Shown here piece after piece: positions 11,605-50,579 of a stretch of 64,000 nt of DNA; within the stretch, counting starts at the first letter, position 1; every line of letters begins with the position of its first letter. The notes under the pieces are model-generated. The model did no database searches and had not been told where the DNA came from. It was given only the letters and a program-made list of their open reading frames with translations. Location of the stretch: positions 186,001 through 250,000 of the forward strand of contig JAJEAA010000018.1 of NCBI GenBank assembly GCA_022824365.1, read 5' to 3'. The position numbers were made by a program, and so were the translations under genes. This DNA is from Anaerolineae bacterium (lineage in GTDB: Bacteria; Chloroflexota; Anaerolineae; Aggregatilineales; Phototrophicaceae).

Positions 11605-12621
11605 ATGGCTAAGCTGACTATCGCTATACTTGGACTGGATCGTCTTGGCGTGTCGATCGCCACCCGTTTGCGCGCTTATGTCGAAAAAGGCGGGCAGCAC
11701 CAGTTTGAGTTGATCGGCTACGACAACCGCGAAGACTTCGAGAAGCCAGCGCGAAAACTCAAGGTGCTGGACAAGGTGGAGCGCAAACCGTATACGGCAG
11801 TGGAGCGAGCCGATCTCGTCATTATGAACCTGCCTTACGAGGATCTGCGGGCAGGATATGAATTGATCGCTTCGTCGCTGCGAGATGGCGTAGTCTTGTT
11901 GGATACCGCCGTCATCAAACAGCCGTCATTGGAGTGGTCGGCGCAGTACCTGAGCCCGGAACAACATTGGATCGGTTTCACCCCGGTGGTCAATTCGGCT
12001 TATATGTTCGAACACGAACTGAGCCCGGATCAAGCCAGCGAAGATTATCTGCATGACAGCGTGATTTACCTCACGCCGTCGGCGCAGTGTATGCGGGAAG
12101 CGATCGATCTCGCGGTGAACTTCTCAATAATACTGGGCGGCAAGCCGGCCTTTCTGGATCCCGCCGAGCACGACAGCCTCACCGCAATCACGGAAGAGAT
12201 ACCGCAACTGCTAAGCATCGCGGCATATTCCACTGCTATGAAGCATAATGCCTGGGGCGATGCGCAGCGACTCACCAACCCGCCTTTCAACATCTTGACG
12301 CGCTACCTTTTGACGCACCATCCGGATGCGCTGCGCGATGAATGGCTGGCGAACCGCGAACGGCTCGCGCGTGGTATAGACGAGCTGGTGAGTACCTTAA
12401 GCGATGTGCGAGACCGGCTGGCGGAGGGAGATGAAACCGCGATTGAAGCCTTTTTGATAGCGGCTTCCGATGATTATCAAGAATGGATAAACCGACGACA
12501 TAAAGGCGAGTGGGACGAACACGCTGCCCCGGGCGTTCAATTCGACAATTCCATTGCCAGTTCCTTGTTTGGCGGCGCGATCAGCAAAAGATTATTCGGC
12601 AGAAAAGACGGCAAGCAGTGA
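11605..12621 (+). CDS. Prephenate dehydrogenase-like NAD(P)-binding protein
   Basis: A 338-residue protein with an N-terminal dinucleotide fold (AILGLDRLGVSIATRL, a glycine loop with G10 and G15) and an alpha-helical second half similar in layout to the prephenate/arogenate dehydrogenase and 6-phosphogluconate-dehydrogenase-like families. HWIGFTPVVNS sits where family members have their HPM-type active-site strand, but the catalytic His is not obvious, so the reaction is unsure. The C-terminus is charged. The ATG at 11605 has AGGGAG before it; an in-frame TTG at 11569 does not. Confidence 0.72.
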   Translation: MAKLTIAILGLDRLGVSIATRLRAYVEKGGQHQFELIGYDNREDFEKPARKLKVLDKVERKPYTAVERADLVIMNLPYEDLRAGYELIASSLRDGVVLLDTAVIKQPSLEWSAQYLSPEQHWIGFTPVVNSAYMFEHELSPDQASEDYLHDSVIYLTPSAQCMREAIDLAVNFSIILGGKPAFLDPAEHDSLTAITEEIPQLLSIAAYSTAMKHNAWGDAQRLTNPPFNILTRYLLTHHPDALRDEWLANRERLARGIDELVSTLSDVRDRLAEGDETAIEAFLIAASDDYQEWINRRHKGEWDEHAAPGVQFDNSIASSLFGGAISKRLFGRKDGKQ

Positions 12622-12736
12622 TCGGCGCGTCTTCATCGTTCACGAAATACGAGCGGCTGTAAGGGTCTCTGAGGTTTCGCGCAGCGCAACCATCGGCGCC
12701 GCAAATGGCGAGAATCCGGACAAGCGAAGCAAAAGT

Positions 12737-12765
12737 TTGACGTCACGCGGCAAATCGTATAAAGT
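12737..12765 (+). promoter_or_regulatory. Promoter of the four-PDZ protein gene
   Basis: TTGACG at 12737-12742 is followed after 15-17 bases by the TATAAAGT stretch (12758-12765). The start codon lies about 75 bases further on. This placement argues that the open frame upstream of 12839 is leader and not coding. Confidence 0.55.
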
Positions 12766-12838
12766 AAGCCAAAGTACGCTATTCACGAGATTTGGATTCT
12801 CAGCCTACTCTATTGTCGAAAGTGAGGAGCTATTGACG

Positions 12839-14149
12839 ATGAAACAGAAAATGAGCATTCTGATACGCTTGTTCGCCGTGCTTGCGCTTATGATGAGCGC
12901 CGCGGTTGTCTTCGCGCAGGACGAAGCCCTAACTGAGAATAGCGAGATTCCATTTATGGGCATTCGCTATTGGGGCGTCAACGAAGGTTTGCTGGTTACC
13001 GGCGTGATTGCCAATACACCGGCCGAGGCCGCTGAGCTTCAGGCGGGCGATGTGGTGACCGCTGTTGAAGGCGAGGAAATCTACGTCGAGACGGTGAGGG
13101 ATGTCGTCTGGAAATATGAGCCGGGCACGACAGTCACTTTGAGTTTGGAACGCGCTGGCGACGCCTTGGAGCAAGACCTGACCCTGATGGCGCGGCCGGA
13201 AGATCTATTCTCTAATGAGAAGTACGCCATGCCGCTGGATTTGGCGTCAATCGGACTGTTCGTCGGTGAATGCGACGGCAAATTGATGGTCTTGGGCGCT
13301 TTGGCCAGTTCGGAAGTTTCGACTGCGGGCTTCCAATTGTACGACCATATCGTTGAGGTTGACGGGGACGCTGTCCACAATATCGGCGAGGCTGATGTAG
13401 CTGTATCGGACTTGACCGATGGAGACGCGCTCAGTTTCGTCGTCCTGCGCGATGGGCGCGAGATGACGATCAAGGTCGCCGCGGTTGATCACCGCCATCA
13501 GCCTCCGCGTCAGCGCCCATATCCGCGTCCGCGCGTTGAGTTGTCCAATACCTACGTCAGCGACAGCATCGGCTTGGGTTACGGTGATGGCTTCATCGAG
13601 GTCCAGGCGATAAGCTCGGCGCACGACCTGTACGCCGCCGGCATCCGCCGCTATGACTTGATCACCGGCGTGAACGGCGCGCCCATCGAAGAAGCCAAGG
13701 ATCTCTTCGCCGATGATGCGATAGGGTTGACAGTGCAACGCCCGAGTGGAACCTTCGAGTTTGACGCGCCCGCGACCGTTGCGCCGCTGCTGCTCTACGG
13801 TCTGGACGGACAGGTTGAGCAAGATCGCTCGCAGTGGCTTGGCTTGCACGAAAAGCAGGTGACGCTGGGCGTGCGCTACTTGCAGCTTGAGCCGGACAAT
13901 CCCTACTTCGAGGGCAGTGGCGTGAACCATGGCGCTTACGTGGCCGAAGTCATTGAAGGCTTGCCCGCGGAGAAGGCCGGGATTCAGGTCGGCGATGTCA
14001 TCGTGGCGGTGGCAGGCGAAGAAGTGACGCTGGAGCTTGACCTGCGCAATCGCATCTACTTCCATAAGCCAGGCGACCAGGTGACGCTTGATGTCCTGCG
14101 CGATGGCGAGATGATGCGGATTGAGGTTACGCTGCGCGTGGCGAGCTAG
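12839..14149 (+). CDS. Secreted protein with four PDZ-like repeats
   Basis: A 436-residue exported protein: signal peptide 1-26 (cleavage VFA-QDE), then four PDZ-like units at roughly 40-118, 137-213, 242-310 and 341-433. Each has the PDZ pattern of a ligand loop, an 'AGxxxGDxIxxVxG' element (LQAGDVVTAVEGEE, FQLYDHIVEVDGD, IRRYDLITGVNGA, IQVGDVIVAVAGEE) and a terminal 'vLRDGeexxixV' strand. A Pro/Arg/His linker (about 217-232) divides the two halves. No protease domain of HtrA or Ctp type is present, so it probably binds protein C-termini outside the membrane. The ATG has GAGGAG nine bases upstream; the strong hairpin at 14177 ends the unit. Confidence 0.82.
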   Translation: MKQKMSILIRLFAVLALMMSAAVVFAQDEALTENSEIPFMGIRYWGVNEGLLVTGVIANTPAEAAELQAGDVVTAVEGEEIYVETVRDVVWKYEPGTTVTLSLERAGDALEQDLTLMARPEDLFSNEKYAMPLDLASIGLFVGECDGKLMVLGALASSEVSTAGFQLYDHIVEVDGDAVHNIGEADVAVSDLTDGDALSFVVLRDGREMTIKVAAVDHRHQPPRQRPYPRPRVELSNTYVSDSIGLGYGDGFIEVQAISSAHDLYAAGIRRYDLITGVNGAPIEEAKDLFADDAIGLTVQRPSGTFEFDAPATVAPLLLYGLDGQVEQDRSQWLGLHEKQVTLGVRYLQLEPDNPYFEGSGVNHGAYVAEVIEGLPAEKAGIQVGDVIVAVAGEEVTLELDLRNRIYFHKPGDQVTLDVLRDGEMMRIEVTLRVAS

Positions 14150-14176
14150 CTAGTAGAATGAGTCACAGTTTAGAAG

Positions 14177-14200
14177 CCCCTGTCAAATGGCAGGGGTTTT
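14177..14200 (+). terminator. Intrinsic terminator after the PDZ protein gene
   Basis: CCCCTG and CAGGGG (extended by a T-G wobble) form a stem with a short A-rich loop, followed by TTTT. It is 28 bases after the stop codon and separates the PDZ gene from the helicase. Confidence 0.85.
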
Positions 14201-14288: not shown

Positions 14289-16370
14289 ATGACATACATT
14301 TTCTTGACAGATCTCTTTAAATGGGATTTGGGAAAGCTAGACAGAGTGAACCAAAATACGGTGGTTAAGACGATAGATCAATTAAATGCGAACCACCATG
14401 ATCCGACTTTGCAGGTCAAGGATGTTAGGAACTTCCCTCGCCGAAATATTTTTCGAGCCCGTGTGAACCAAAACTTTCAACTACTGGGGGAATGGCTGCC
14501 CCAGGGAGATATCCGGCTATGGCGTGTTGGCAGCCATAACTTTGTTGATGCTATTGACGACCTACCTTTTGCCGCTGGCTATAGGTGGACGAGATGGAGT
14601 GAAAGAGAGGAAAATTCTGCCGGAGCATCAAGTAAGCGTCAGTCTCAAGAAAAGCCGAGACCATTTAAGAATTTCCCGAGTAATATTCTGCGTTTGTTTG
14701 GCGTGCCAGACTCGCAACTGGAAGCGGTTAAATACTTGCATGACCCTGAAACCATTTGGGAATTTCCGATCCCCCTTAACGTCAAATGGACACTGAATGA
14801 TATTGTTAACTTGCAAGAAAATTGGACGGCGGACCGCTTTCTTGATCCGAAACAACTTCTTTATCGAACTACAGTTGATCAGTTGAGAGGATATTGCGAA
14901 GGAGAGATCAAGCGTCTATTGCTCAATCTGACGGAAGAGCAAAAGCAGTTTGTGCACATCAAGGCGAATGGCCCCGTGCTGGTTAAGGGTGTTGCTGGAT
15001 CAGGCAAGACAACCATCGGGCTTTATCGGGCTCATGAACTGAAGAGAGAAAACGGAAGCAGCAAGCGAATGTTTGCTCAGAAGAACTATCGAGTTTTGCT
15101 GCTCACGTACACCAAAACGTTAACTAATGCGATGAAGCAGTTATATGAAGAGCTCTACGGCGAAGTCCCGCATGACGTCAACATCACTACAATCAGTTCT
15201 TGGATGTTCAGACAACTTAACAGAGCCGGTGTACGGCTCTCCATTGCTGAAGACTCATTTAGACATGAGTTGATAAGGCAAGCACAAAAGGAAATAACCA
15301 GGCGTTATCCGACAGACACAGTTGTGTCTCAGCGAGATACGGAGTATCTTTTGGATGAAATAGACCAGGTCATTCGCGCTCGGTGGCTGAAAACCCTGGC
15401 TCAATACAAGGCGATCAATCGTGTTGGGCGAGGCGTGGGTTTGGATCGAGAACGTCACCGCCCCATCGTTTGGGAGATTTACTTGCGCTATCAGCAATTG
15501 CTTGACCATGAGAGGTTATGTGACTGGGCAGATTTGCCGCGCCTAGTCGATAAATTCTGTCAGCCGCTGCCACAATTGCACGGAGTAATCATTGATGAGG
15601 CTCAGGATCTACCTCCAAGTCATCTTCTTCTGATATCACAGCTAATTCCTGATTTTCGTGAGGGGCGCAGCTTGACCTTGCTAGCGGACCCAGCGCAAAG
15701 CATCTATTATCGAGGCATCGCTTGGAAAGAAGGTGGTGTTAATGTTCAAGGCAGCCGTACCAGAACGCTTGACAAGAGTTTCCGCAACTCGCTACAAATA
15801 CTGGAAGCCGCTCGCTATATTGCAGAAGGTTTCAGCGACCTCAAAACCGCAGAGGAATACATCCCTCCTGAAAGCACCGATCGAAACGGGCCGAAGCCAG
15901 TACTAGCTGCATACAAGTATGTCAGAGATGCAAAGGATTTTGTCATCAACAAAACCATAGAATTGTGTCAGAGCGGCAATTATCGGCCTGGCGATATAGC
16001 AATTCTATCTCGCACCAAAAAACAGTTCGCTTCTTGGGAAAGAGCATTCCGTCTAGCCTCGCTGAACCTCACTTTTTTCCGCGAGGGCAGCTTCCGTATC
16101 TTGGAGAACGATGCCAAGTTCATCACGATGCACTCCGCGAAAGGACTAGAGTTCCCAGTCGTGTTCGTCATAAATTTAGATGACCGCATAATGCCGCTCA
16201 TCTTCCACTCGTCCGAAACTAAAGCACAAGATGAACTACAAGAACGCAAGCTCTTCTACGTCAGCATGACGCGGGCGTCCGAGCGGCTGTATATGCTCCA
16301 TCCTCAGCGCAATCCCAGCCGCTTTTTGCGCGAAATCGGCGCAGACGCCATCTGCAAAATCCAATGTTAA
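14289..16370 (+). CDS. UvrD-type superfamily 1 helicase with RelE/ParE-like N-terminal domain
   Basis: A 693-residue SF1 helicase: Walker A GVAGSGKTT (234-242), motif II IIDEAQD (434-440), motif III LLADPAQSIY (464-473), motif IV DKSFRNS (495-501), motif V ITMHSAKGLEFPVVFV (612-627) and motif VI LFYVSMTRASERLYM (655-669). Residues 1-95 are separate: a helix, then PRRNIFRARVNQNFQLLGEW and DIRLWRVGSHNFVD, matching the beta-sheet pattern of RelE/ParE toxins ('yRiRvgdyRvly ... vghR'). A 130-residue linker with a charged segment lies between. The gene is visibly richer in A/T and in AT-ending codons than its neighbours, suggesting transfer. It stands alone, convergent with rny, with no antitoxin beside it. 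A DNA repair or phage-defence role is inferred. Confidence 0.85.
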   Translation: MTYIFLTDLFKWDLGKLDRVNQNTVVKTIDQLNANHHDPTLQVKDVRNFPRRNIFRARVNQNFQLLGEWLPQGDIRLWRVGSHNFVDAIDDLPFAAGYRWTRWSEREENSAGASSKRQSQEKPRPFKNFPSNILRLFGVPDSQLEAVKYLHDPETIWEFPIPLNVKWTLNDIVNLQENWTADRFLDPKQLLYRTTVDQLRGYCEGEIKRLLLNLTEEQKQFVHIKANGPVLVKGVAGSGKTTIGLYRAHELKRENGSSKRMFAQKNYRVLLLTYTKTLTNAMKQLYEELYGEVPHDVNITTISSWMFRQLNRAGVRLSIAEDSFRHELIRQAQKEITRRYPTDTVVSQRDTEYLLDEIDQVIRARWLKTLAQYKAINRVGRGVGLDRERHRPIVWEIYLRYQQLLDHERLCDWADLPRLVDKFCQPLPQLHGVIIDEAQDLPPSHLLLISQLIPDFREGRSLTLLADPAQSIYYRGIAWKEGGVNVQGSRTRTLDKSFRNSLQILEAARYIAEGFSDLKTAEEYIPPESTDRNGPKPVLAAYKYVRDAKDFVINKTIELCQSGNYRPGDIAILSRTKKQFASWERAFRLASLNLTFFREGSFRILENDAKFITMHSAKGLEFPVVFVINLDDRIMPLIFHSSETKAQDELQERKLFYVSMTRASERLYMLHPQRNPSRFLREIGADAICKIQC

Positions 16371-16376
16371 CGTAGC

Positions 16377-17939
16377 CTACTTCGCGTACTCCACGCGCCG
16401 CGTCTCGCGAATCACGTTCACCTTGATCTGCCCCGGATATTGCATGTCGCTTTCGATGCGTTTGGCGATATCGCGGGCCAGTTGAATCGAGGAGTAATCG
16501 TCCACCACCTCGGGACGCACGATGATACGCACCTCGCGACCGGCTTGCAGCGCATAGCTCTGCTCGACGCCATCGAATCCGTTCGCAATCTCCTCTAACT
16601 GCTTCACGCGCCGGATGTAAGAATCGAGGCTCTCGCGCCGGGCGCCGGGTCTCGCGCCGGAAATGGCGTCGGCCGCTTCCACGATAAAAGCTTCGACGCA
16701 TTCTTTCTCGACTTCGTGATGATGCGCGGCGATGCAATTCACAACCGGGTCAGAACCGCCATAGCGCTTGACAAACTCAGCGCCGATTTGGGCGTGCGTC
16801 CCTTCAATGTTATGATCGATCGCTTTGCCAATATCGTGGAGCAAGCCGCCGGCTTTGGCGATGTTCACATCGGCGCCCAGTTCCATCGCGATCATCCCGG
16901 CGATATGCGCTGTCTCGATGGCGTGCGCATGTTGGTTTTGGCCGTAACTCGTGCGGAACTTTAGCTGCCCCAGCAGGTTCAGCACCTCCGTGTGCAAGCC
17001 ATGAATCCCCGTCTCATAGGCAGCGCGTTCGCCTTCCTCGCGAACGATCTGCTCGACCTCAGCCCGCGTATCTTCCACCAATTTCTCTATGCGCGCCGGG
17101 TGAATCCTGCCATCCACGACAAGTTTCGCCATCGTGCGCTTGGCAACTTCCCGCCTGACCGGATCGAAGCTGCTGATGGTGACGGATTCAGGCGAGTCAT
17201 CGACGACAACATCGACGCCGGTTGCCAACTCAAAGGAGCGGATATTGCGTCCGTTGCGCCCGATGATGCGCCCCTTCATTTCGTCGCTCGGCAAATGCAC
17301 AACGCTGACGGAGATCTCGCTAACTTGCTCGGAGGCCAAGCGCTGTATCGCCATGGCGATGAGACTGCGGGCGCGCTGATCGGCGGTTTCACGAGCTTCC
17401 GCTTCCACTTGGCGGATGATGCGCGCCATGTCGTTGCGCGCGTCCAACTCGATGGAATCGAGCAATTGCTGCCGCGCTTCGTCCACGGTCATTTGCGCGA
17501 TCACTTCGAGCTTCTCTATCATCGTGGACTCTGATTTGCGGAGCTCGTTTTCCTTTCGGTCGAGGCGGCTTTGGCGCTTGTTCAACTGCTGATCGCGCTG
17601 TTCGAGCCGTTCGACGCGCTTGTCGAGTTCATTGCGTCGGCGCTGAATACGCTCGTCCTCATCACCCAGGTCACGGCGGCGGCGGGCAATCTTGGCGTCG
17701 GCCTCATTAATACGCCGGCGCGCATCGCCTTCCGCCTCGGCGATGATCTGCGCCTTTTCTGTTTCGGCGGTTTTGAGTATTTCCTTCGCGTCGGCCGATG
17801 CCTTTATTAACGCGCTTTCACCTTCAGCCTGCTGCCTTTTGAGCAGCGCGTCAACACTACGCCGGCTGCCGATGGCATAGCCCGCGCCGATCCCCAAAAC
17901 TGCAGTAACGATTGCAATTGCAAGTCCAGTGAGTTCCAT
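16377..17939 (-). CDS. rny: Ribonuclease Y
   Basis: RNase Y is the membrane-anchored endoribonuclease that starts mRNA decay. The 520-residue protein shows the full family order: one N-terminal membrane helix (about 4-24), a long Arg/Glu-rich coiled coil (35-205), a KH domain with GRIIGRNGRNIR (223-234) and an HD domain with LLHDIGKAIDH (H368-D369) and HHHEVEKE, ending in the family's KVNVIRETRRVEYAK. The ATG at 17939 lacks a ribosome site; a good one (AAGGAG, 17979-17984) instead precedes an out-of-frame ATG at 17968 whose short ORF overlaps the rny start, so coupled or leader-controlled initiation is possible. Confidence 0.96.
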   Translation of the reverse strand: MELTGLAIAIVTAVLGIGAGYAIGSRRSVDALLKRQQAEGESALIKASADAKEILKTAETEKAQIIAEAEGDARRRINEADAKIARRRRDLGDEDERIQRRRNELDKRVERLEQRDQQLNKRQSRLDRKENELRKSESTMIEKLEVIAQMTVDEARQQLLDSIELDARNDMARIIRQVEAEARETADQRARSLIAMAIQRLASEQVSEISVSVVHLPSDEMKGRIIGRNGRNIRSFELATGVDVVVDDSPESVTISSFDPVRREVAKRTMAKLVVDGRIHPARIEKLVEDTRAEVEQIVREEGERAAYETGIHGLHTEVLNLLGQLKFRTSYGQNQHAHAIETAHIAGMIAMELGADVNIAKAGGLLHDIGKAIDHNIEGTHAQIGAEFVKRYGGSDPVVNCIAAHHHEVEKECVEAFIVEAADAISGARPGARRESLDSYIRRVKQLEEIANGFDGVEQSYALQAGREVRIIVRPEVVDDYSSIQLARDIAKRIESDMQYPGQIKVNVIRETRRVEYAK

Positions 17940-18691: not shown

Positions 18692-19345
18692 AAAGCCGCA
18701 GTTGATACAAGGCTACGGTCATAGCAACAATAGGATTACGGAGTGTACTGATACAGCTCAGTGTCTTCGGATTGTGCGCCGTGCTGGCGCAAGAGGCCAG
18801 CCTGCCCACGTACAACAGAAAAACGCTAATGCTTTCGATCTATTGCCAATCCACTTGCTGTGGGGCAGTTCACACAAATATGATCCATACCCGATTTTTG
18901 CCGGTTGATCGCTCGTAATCCGCGCAGTATAAGCCGCAGCAGCGGAATCAGCTTTTGCCATGATATTGCTTCGTGGCTGAATCCGCGGGTATTCTCGCCA
19001 ATACTCTCTACCCTTAAACCATAAGCCGCATTTGAGGCAGTAGAGCACAGGTCTTCAATTAACGAATTGGCGAGGCAAGATCGGAACTTTCTTCCAATAC
19101 CTCGCACCAAATCATTATACATCATAATCCAGTCTGACAAGTATCGCGTTGTCTGCAAGATTCCAAAGGGCTAAAATTGACGCATGAAAGGAACTGTTTT
19201 TCCGCCATTTCAGAGTCCACGTATGCAGCGCCGCAGCGTCGGGATTATGTCACTTTGATGTTTCCTATGCAGCAATTACGAAAGCTATTTCTATATCGTT
19301 TCCGCGAACGCGCCATCTCGATCGAAGACGCTTGAATGAATTATC
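18692..19345 (+). other. Gene-poor interval
   Basis: About 650 bases with no convincing gene. The open frames on both strands (for example minus 18826-19158 and 18758-19048) have no ribosome site, family character or normal codon use. On the minus strand TTGTCA (19135-19140) and TATAAT (19114-19119) are 15 bases apart and point toward recX, so a long recX leader or a small RNA could start here. Base composition is AT-richer than the surroundings. Confidence 0.5.
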
Positions 19346-20155
19346 GTGAGCAATAATCCGGTGAGAAAGTCGCGCGGAATTTTGGTTACCGGCGGCGGCA
19401 CGTTTCTTGGAGACAACATTGCCGCTGCCCTGCTGGCGGAAGGCAGCAAGGTCAGTCTATTGCTGCGGCCCGGCGCCGAAGACAAGCTGGGGCCACTGGC
19501 TCAGCAGACGCGCTGGTCGACGGCTGATGTCTGGAGTCCGGCCAGTTTGCGCGGGAAGGCGCGCAATCACGCAGCCGTGATTCACACGGTGGGCAGCCTG
19601 ACTGCCGACCCCAGCCGCGGGCTGTCCTTCGAGCGAGTGAACTTTGTATCGGCGCGCAATGTCGCCAATATGTGCGTCAGCGACGGCGTAGAGCGCATAA
19701 TATTGATTAGTGGAGCCAGCGCGCCCTGGGTCAATCGAGCTTACATTCAATCGAAACGCAAGGCGGAAAGCTACCTGAACCGCGTCGGGCTGCAGGCGAT
19801 AGTCGTTCGGGCGCCGCTCCTCTACTTACCGGGGCAGAAGCGGCCGCTCTTCTATCAGGCGATGTCGCTTATAGGCGCGATACCACCGCTTTCCTGGCTT
19901 TATCTCGGGCGTATCGCGCCGATTTCTATTGATATCCTGGCTCGAGGCGTCGCGCGGATCGCGCTGGACGAGACCTTAACCGGGTCGATCCATTACGCGC
20001 GCGACTTGCGGCGACTGGCTCGGCCTGGGGCCGGCTTGTCGTCATCGGTCGGATTGGACCGCCATTCCTCAGGCGGAGGGGAAGATGACAGCCCGTTTGA
20101 CAGCCTGGATGAAGAACTGCCATTTGGCTGGTCGCCAAGGGACGAGCCGCCTTAA
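19346..20155 (+). CDS. NAD(P)-binding SDR/NmrA-like protein
   Basis: A 269-residue atypical short-chain dehydrogenase. The N-terminal nucleotide loop is VTGGGTFLGDNIA (residues 14-26) and a YxxxK pair is present (Y133 and K137 in AYIQSK), as in extended SDR epimerases and NAD(P)H-binding NmrA/NDUFA9-type proteins. The last 45 residues are Asp/Ser/Pro-rich and look disordered. The substrate is unknown. The start is GTG at 19346, with a weak ribosome site; the ATG ten bases upstream is in another, quickly closed frame. Confidence 0.75.
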   Translation: MSNNPVRKSRGILVTGGGTFLGDNIAAALLAEGSKVSLLLRPGAEDKLGPLAQQTRWSTADVWSPASLRGKARNHAAVIHTVGSLTADPSRGLSFERVNFVSARNVANMCVSDGVERIILISGASAPWVNRAYIQSKRKAESYLNRVGLQAIVVRAPLLYLPGQKRPLFYQAMSLIGAIPPLSWLYLGRIAPISIDILARGVARIALDETLTGSIHYARDLRRLARPGAGLSSSVGLDRHSSGGGEDDSPFDSLDEELPFGWSPRDEPP

Positions 20156-49917: not shown

Positions 49918-50047
49918 TCAATTGCTCCCGCTGGACTAAGTTTCCTGCTCATCCCAAGTCTCCGCTTTGAAAGCGGAGGTTATCAGTTTGTCCCGATCGA
50001 TTGCCGATTTCGATATGCCGCCCGCACATTGCGCCGCGCGAACCAGC

Positions 50048-50434
50048 CTACTTCTTGGTCGCGCCTCGGCGACGGCCGCGTCCGGCGACAGTTTGCTTCT
50101 TGCCGCGGCGGGTACGGCCATTGGTGCGCGTGCGCTGGCCGCGAACGGGCAAACGCCGGCGATGGCGCAAGCCGCGGTAAGAATTGATCTCCATCAAGCG
50201 CTTGATATTCAACTGCGTCTGCCGACGCAGATCGCCCTCGATCGTCAAACCGCCGATCAATTCTCGCAAGCGCTGCACTTCGCTTTCGCTGAGATCGCGG
50301 ACGCGCGTGCTATGGTCGATGCCGGCCGAATTCAACAGCCGTTGACTTGTAGACTTTCCGATACCGTAAATATAGGTCAAGCCGATGACAACACGCTTGT
50401 CCCTAGGCAGGTCGACGCCTTCAATACGAGCCAT
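50048..50434 (-). CDS. rpsM: 30S ribosomal protein S13
   Basis: A 128-residue S13: [26 protein letters not shown] at the start, a helix-two-turn-helix core and [27 protein letters not shown] with the basic tail that reaches the ribosome's intersubunit bridge. It starts 31 bases after rpmJ. Confidence 0.97.
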
Positions 50435-50465
50435 AAATCATACTCCTTTATAAGGACGGACAGCC

Positions 50466-50579
50466 TTAGCCCTGCCTCTGCTTATGCTTCGGGTTTTCGC
50501 AGATAATCATGACGCGCCGTTTGCGCTTGATGACCCGGCATTTCGGGCAGCGGCGCTTGACACTCGCTCCAACTTTCAT
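50466..50579 (-). CDS. rpmJ: 50S ribosomal protein L36
   Basis: A 37-residue L36, too short for most gene finders: [14 protein letters not shown] is followed by [16 protein letters not shown]. The zinc ligands C11, C14, C27 and the His in PKHKQ are intact, so it is the zinc-bearing type. It is the first gene after the 350-base gap following map and probably begins the transcript from the promoter at 50729-50756. Confidence 0.96.

What the first reader, a model, noticed from the sequence alone, without database searches (positions are those of the whole stretch)
14289..16370. RelE/ParE-like domain fused to a UvrD-type helicase in an AT-richer, stand-alone gene
Seen in sequence: residues 1-95 have the pattern of RelE/ParE toxins (PRRNIFRARVNQNFQLLGEW, then DIRLWRVGSHNFVD) and residues 210-693 carry all SF1 helicase motifs. 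The gene is visibly richer in A/T and AT-ending codons than both neighbours, has no antitoxin gene beside it, and lies between a terminator and a convergent gene. Inference: a transferred defence or stress module, in which the toxin-like fold may act as an RNase, a regulator or a binding platform for the motor. Whether this architecture is already known I cannot tell without a search.
Basis: partly seen in the sequence, partly recalled or inferred. Interest (0 to 1): 0.75.

Follow-up and report, generated by a model that had tools for sequence, protein, structure and literature searches.

The report
Solitary RelE-UvrD helicase, probably antiphage
A lone, apparently borrowed gene fuses a toxin-like RNA-cutting fold to a DNA/RNA motor, like one part of a known four-gene antiphage system, but it stands alone in a chromosomal slot where a related bacterium carries a different defence-type gene.

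The parts
14289..16370 (+). RelE-UvrD fusion gene, 693 aa
14289..14573 (+). RelE-fold domain, residues 1-95
   Evidence: model and structure matches; family hits among homologues
14478..14480 (+). codon of Q64; R in the other 51 of 52 rows of A1
14535..14537 (+). H83, conserved in 51 of 52; by the ends of the structural alignment it falls at YafQ H87 (inference)
14547..14549 (+). D87, conserved in 51 of 52; Tyr in 10 of 12 plasmid relatives
14664..14912 (+). middle module, residues 126-208 (LRLFGVPD...), shared with ArmD
14913..16367 (+). UvrD-type SF1 helicase, residues 209-693
14988..15011 (+). Walker A, GVAGSGKT (K240, aligned with ArmD K266)
15594..15605 (+). Walker B, DEAQ (D436, aligned with ArmD D454)
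14173..14200 (+). terminator-like hairpin behind the PDZ gene
12554..14149 (+). PDZ-domain gene, left border of the slot (start codon uncertain; in many relatives the match begins at residue 93-96)
16377..17939 (-). rny (RNase Y: RNase_Y_N, KH_1, HD), right border of the slot, convergent

Best explanation
The gene is a solitary, horizontally exchanged relative of ArmD that most likely acts as a one-gene antiphage (or anti-element) helicase. Shown: three-module architecture, intact Walker motifs, RelE fold (predicted structure), solitary setting, varying slot contents, tree conflict. Inferred: the ATP-driven UvrD motor tracks along foreign or damaged nucleic acid, and the RelE-like domain supplies contact with RNA or the translation machinery. 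In most of the family it may also cut RNA; in this copy, which lacks the most conserved Arg of the domain, it more likely binds than cuts.
For: ArmD homology over the full length including the middle module (Walker K266 and D454 at the published positions); ArmD's Walker A mutant abolishes ARMADA defence (PMC12458937, section 6). 9 of 9 matches (E 1e-60) in 34 genus genomes lie beside rny. The slot in 31 readable genomes, own included, holds RelE-UvrD (6, one with a run of N inside), a deleted and interrupted copy (1), a remnant (1), a shorter RelE-like/UvrD variant (2), PDC-S68 (2) or only 102-675 bp (19). In the 11 relatives with more than a spacer, insert GC is 0.464-0.543 (N left out), below both flanking genes. 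The UvrD tree rejects grouping the window copy with G313 (p-AU 0.001), which its flanks support. Solitary also in two other genomes of the phylum. N-domain identity to P0002 and P0003 matches helicase identity (0.74 against 0.77; 0.68 against 0.66), so the domain is still constrained although residue 64 changed.
Against: No phage assay. ArmD works only with ArmA-C in the tested system, so a lone relative may be inactive or do something else. PADLOC gives the window protein helicase matches only, GajB and NERD+UvrD foremost. Most genus genomes (25 of 34) lack any match at E 1e-60. The tree conflict could also come from loss of alternative old copies. The binding-not-cutting step rests on one residue in one genome, and YafQ, an active RNase, is recalled to lack an Arg at that place; PMC3710099 (passages) notes that this RNase fold uses alternative active sites.
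Confidence: 0.6

Rival explanations
1. Active toxin: the RelE-like domain is a ribosome-dependent or free RNase held inactive by the helicase and unleashed on infection, causing translation arrest without a separate antitoxin.
For: RelE fold with R58, R79, H83 and D87 kept in 47, 50, 51 and 51 of 52; closest structures include YafQ, YoeB, RelE and Cami1.
Against: Window copy has Q64, sister P0002 has S58 and Q83; D87 stands where 10 of 12 plasmid relatives have Tyr; ARMADA protects without shutting down host metabolism (PMC12458937, section 6).
Confidence: 0.2
2. Housekeeping helicase: a PcrA/HelD-like repair or RNA-polymerase clearing motor with an added domain.
For: Best solved-structure matches of the whole protein are PcrA and UvrD.
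Against: NCBIfam pcrA score 113.6 against a cut-off of 911.2; found in 6 of 34 genus genomes; slot holds unrelated genes elsewhere; low GC3; the genome has another open frame of 777 aa matching the helicase C-terminal end.
Confidence: 0.1
3. Partner of RNase Y: the gene is kept beside rny because it feeds RNA to RNase Y.
For: 9 of 9 genus matches are next to rny.
Against: rny is in 34 of 34 genomes but the slot is near empty in 19 of 31 and holds PDC-S68 in two; genes are convergent; copies in G164 and G348 lie among other genes in the stretches read.
Confidence: 0.05
4. Acts in trans as the missing ArmD of an ARMADA Type I-like operon on another contig of the same genome.
For: G000 contig 29 carries YprA-like, SNF2-like and methyltransferase genes in the Type I order.
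Against: Co-occurrence in the genus 3 of 6 against 4 of 28, Fisher p 0.086 (YprA-like matches at E 1e-20); 3 of 6 carriers have no YprA-like match.
Confidence: 0.05

Closest known systems
ArmD of ARMADA Type II (PMC12458937; E. coli plasmid copy WP_094885497.1)
   Same: RelE-like domain, middle LGVP-type module, GajB-like UvrD helicase in the same order; H83 position and Walker motifs align.
   Different: 21% identity; ArmD is the last gene of a four-gene operon, this gene is solitary; ArmD has R at position 64 and H-x3-Y, the window Q and H-x3-D.
RelE/YafQ/YoeB/ParE toxin superfamily
   Different: Fused to a helicase, no antitoxin beside it, Q64 in this copy; a word-based search found one stand-alone-length relative, on a 594-base contig.
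Cami1 (70S-bound, cA4-bound in the PDB titles; CARF-RelE make-up is recalled)
   Different: No helicase (recalled).
CnuH of CoCoNuT systems (PMC11090510, passages)
   Same: RelE-like domain plus SF1 helicase in one defence protein.
   Different: UPF1-like helicase with OB-folds, in a McrBC-type operon.
GajB of Gabija
   Same: UvrD-type helicase core (PADLOC GajB 1.1e-28).
   Different: GajB is recalled to lack an N-terminal RelE domain; no GajA beside this gene.

Membership tests
ARMADA Type II | ArmD architecture: N-terminal RelE-like domain on a GajB-like UvrD helicase | tested here: met
ARMADA Type II | Four-gene operon ArmA-ArmB-ArmC-ArmD in strict order | tested here: not met
   solitary between PDZ gene and rny; slots with RelE-UvrD in relatives are about 2.2 kb, with no room for the other genes
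RelE/ParE superfamily | beta-alpha-alpha-beta-beta-beta RelE fold | tested here: met
   predicted structure
RelE/ParE superfamily | Conserved basic/His active-site set | tested here: inconclusive
   R58, R79, H83 and D87 present, position 64 is Q; that position 64 equals RelE R61/YoeB R65 is recalled
Type II toxin-antitoxin system | Cognate antitoxin gene beside the toxin | tested here: not met
   139 bp upstream and 6 bp downstream leave no room for a gene
Type II toxin-antitoxin system | mRNA cleavage or gyrase inhibition | not testable with these tools
   needs biochemistry
Gabija | GajA encoded beside GajB | tested here: not met
   neighbours are a PDZ gene and rny
PcrA/UvrD/Rep housekeeping helicases | NCBIfam equivalog score above cut-off | tested here: not met
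   pcrA 113.6 against 911.2, uvrD 65.8 against 1144.45
CoCoNuT CnuH | Operon with McrB-type GTPase and partners | tested here: not met
   neighbours are a PDZ gene and rny

The most novel reading that the evidence does not exclude
A one-gene antiphage helicase, split off from or ancestral to multi-gene ARMADA-type systems, in which a RelE RNase fold has been turned into a non-cutting RNA or ribosome contact in the window's lineage, and which is exchanged at a fixed slot beside rny, where the open frames I read showed no transposase or integrase.
Probability: 0.25. Interest if true: 0.65.

Novelty: new variant of a known kind. Interest (0 to 1): 0.45.

Why it matters
If solitary RelE-UvrD proteins protect on their own, they offer a one-gene model for what ArmD contributes to ARMADA, whose RelE domain is not among the mutations named in section 6 of PMC12458937. 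Natural copies with and without the conserved Arg allow a direct test of whether that domain cuts or only binds. The rny-side slot may also be a marker for finding further defence genes in this group.

Tried and rejected
Direct Pfam evidence for RelE in the window protein: none; only homologues and the predicted structure show it. Profile of the N-domain against solved structures: best RelE3 at only E 0.007, so sequence alone would not settle the fold. One relative's domain gave chance-like WD-repeat hits first and weak H. pylori toxin hits after. Stand-alone toxin ancestor: one candidate on a 594-base contig (159 candidates scored). Phage carriage: 2 phage records, helicase part only. Promoter scan: one site against 2.8 expected, uninformative. 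Co-occurrence with YprA-like genes: p 0.086, not decisive. Two of the four distant loci of the phylum (G251, G353) were fetched but their neighbours not inspected.

Papers. Searches. Seven papers were opened: PMC12458937 (abstract, sections 5, 6 and 12 in full, passages and legends); passages only of PMC11090510, PMC5512222, PMC1462988, PMC7251935, PMC3710099 and PMC7641849. Of these only PMC12458937 describes a RelE-UvrD protein in what I saw, and none that I saw describes a solitary form; the other listed papers were seen as listings only. PDC-S68 is in no paper of the library.

Limits of tallies: the phylum search used E 1e-80 and scored at most 3 first-look candidates per genome, so 3 of 301 is a lower bound. 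The 13 plasmid relatives were picked by hand from the 40 rows listed of 58 records.

Full report
Observation. The ORF at 14289-16370 (+) encodes 693 aa. It lies 139 bp after a PDZ-domain gene, behind a 12-pair terminator-like hairpin, and 6 bp from the convergent rny gene (Pfam names of both). Its GC is 0.477 and GC3 0.507, the lowest of 52 non-overlapping ORFs of 150 aa or more in the window (mean GC3 0.686, sd 0.048; z -3.7). In the sliding profile, windows lying wholly inside the gene have GC 0.46-0.49; most windows around it lie between 0.53 and 0.62, but another dip to 0.49 lies at 18.75-19.5 kb, between recX and the next long open frame.

Conserved residues. In A1, H83 is kept in 51 of 52, D87 in 51, R79 in 50, R58 in 47, and position 64 is R in 51 of 52. 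The exception at 64 is the window protein, with Q. In a second set with 12 plasmid-borne relatives, two variant genes and four homologues, position 64 is R in all 18 others; H83 is H in 16 of these 18 (R in Pseudanabaena, Q in P0002). The nearest relative, P0002 (75% identity), keeps R64 but has S58 and Q83. By the ends of the structural alignment (model 88 on YafQ 92), H83 falls on YafQ H87 (inference); that position 64 corresponds to RelE R61 and YoeB R65 is recalled. N-domain to helicase identity ratios are 0.97 for P0002 and 1.03 for P0003; pairs of like helicase identity average 0.88 (22 pairs, 0.70-0.80) and 0.84 (157 pairs, 0.60-0.70). So the domain is not decaying. I read this as a domain kept for its surface while its RNase chemistry is doubtful in this copy.

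Neighbourhood in the genus. Of 34 genus genomes, 9 (own included) have a match at E 1e-60, and all 9 lie directly 3' of rny, which all 34 have. Two of the 9, G305 and G323, match only from about residue 210. Gene order M50 peptidase - HD - 350-aa PDH_N protein - PDZ - slot - rny - recX recurs wherever the fetched stretch reaches. In 31 genomes both borders of the slot were readable (G303, G309 and G333 were not). Contents: RelE-UvrD in G000, G313, G318, G310, G322 and G304 (with 273 N inside); a deleted, interrupted copy in G301; a short remnant in G312; a UvrD gene with a divergent RelE-like N-terminus (by eye) and no middle module in G305 and G323; a RecD-like gene of 1257 aa or more on the other strand in G325 and G328; 102-675 bp only in 19, not examined for decayed remains beyond the tblastn. 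The RecD-like gene matches PADLOC's defence candidate PDC-S68 over nearly its length (1312 and 1358 bits). G325 is the sister genome (rny 98%, PDZ 91%, recX 88% identical), so the slot content changed recently. Insert GC is below both flanking genes in all 30 relatives, but for the 19 short slots that is just spacer DNA; in the 11 others it is 0.464-0.543 with N left out, against 0.58-0.63 in the borders.

Transfer. In the tree of flanking proteins G000 groups with G325, G329 and G313. In the UvrD tree the window copy groups with P0002, P0003 and P0010, while G313, G318, G310 and G322 fall in another starred group of 14 rows; holding G000 and G313 together is rejected (lnL 347 lower, p-AU 0.001, quick tree). 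I read this as horizontal exchange of the window copy; loss of alternative old copies is a less simple alternative. The other four may be vertical.

Relatives elsewhere. tblastn found 58 plasmid records. I inspected 13 of the 40 listed. In 11 the annotation shows a defence- or restriction-type neighbour: DNA methyltransferase or restriction subunit M, with a large DEAD/DEAH or Zn-binding helicase (E. coli, Allomeiothermus, T. thermophilus, also beside csm genes, Tsukamurella, Pseudanabaena); BPTD_3080 restriction enzyme, with methyltransferase in two of three (P. amygdali, Gemmobacter; not seen in Sphingomonas); dpdH (Deinococcus); brxL (T. oshimai); an Abi protein and a RecB-like nuclease (Qipengyuania). 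In Microvirga the stretch shows only the large helicase and no such annotation, in Aulosira mostly large hypothetical genes. By contrast, copies in two other genomes of the phylum stand among a tRNA synthetase and a glycosyl hydrolase (G164), and a solute-binding protein and a cellulase-like gene (G348). That the phylum is Chloroflexota is inferred from named records L003 and L004, whose contigs have the lengths of those of G318 and G322. Phage records and viral contigs gave no match reaching the RelE domain.

Known system. [quoted passage not shown] The E. coli plasmid protein L160:9626-11740 has its Walker lysine at 266 and aspartate at 454 and aligns with the window protein through all three modules (A4; 21% identity). 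It has H-x3-Y where the window family has H-x3-D. PMC11090510 describes another RelE-like/SF1 fusion, CnuH (passages). So the architecture is known; the solitary form beside rny is the variant.

Mechanism. Shown: predicted fold, motifs, solitary setting, changing slot, tree conflict. Inferred: antiphage function (0.6), with the motor acting on foreign nucleic acid and the RelE-like domain contacting RNA or ribosomes. A toxin-like RNase role is possible for the family and less likely for this copy. A trans role with an ARMADA Type I-like operon on contig 29 of the same genome is neither supported nor excluded (Fisher p 0.086).

Noticed in passing
L172:8341-19427 (own genome, contig 29): Three-gene operon: YprA/DruE-like helicase 1706 aa, DpdE/DrmD-like SNF2 helicase 941 aa, DrmMI-like methyltransferase 1046 aa (PADLOC), in the order described for ARMADA Type I.
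   Followed up: partly
L124:3129-6902 and L134:3012-7097: PDC-S68-type RecD-like gene in the rny-side slot of two relatives, on the opposite strand; its C-terminal end looks nuclease-like by eye only.
   Followed up: partly
L133:3070-4956 and L135:3054-4982: Shorter UvrD genes (628 and 642 aa) with divergent RelE-like N-termini that keep R and H at positions 64 and 83 but lack the middle module.
   Followed up: partly
L140 (G312 slot): An 89-codon open frame that starts like the RelE domain and ends like the helicase C-terminus: remnant of a deleted copy.
   Followed up: no
window 49967-50506: Second-lowest GC3 (0.572, z -2.4) of the 52 ORFs.
   Followed up: no
window 18750-19499: Low-GC stretch (0.49) between recX and the next long open frame.
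   Followed up: no
L250:6989-15974: On a T. thermophilus plasmid the relative lies beside a type III-A CRISPR (csm) locus.
   Followed up: no
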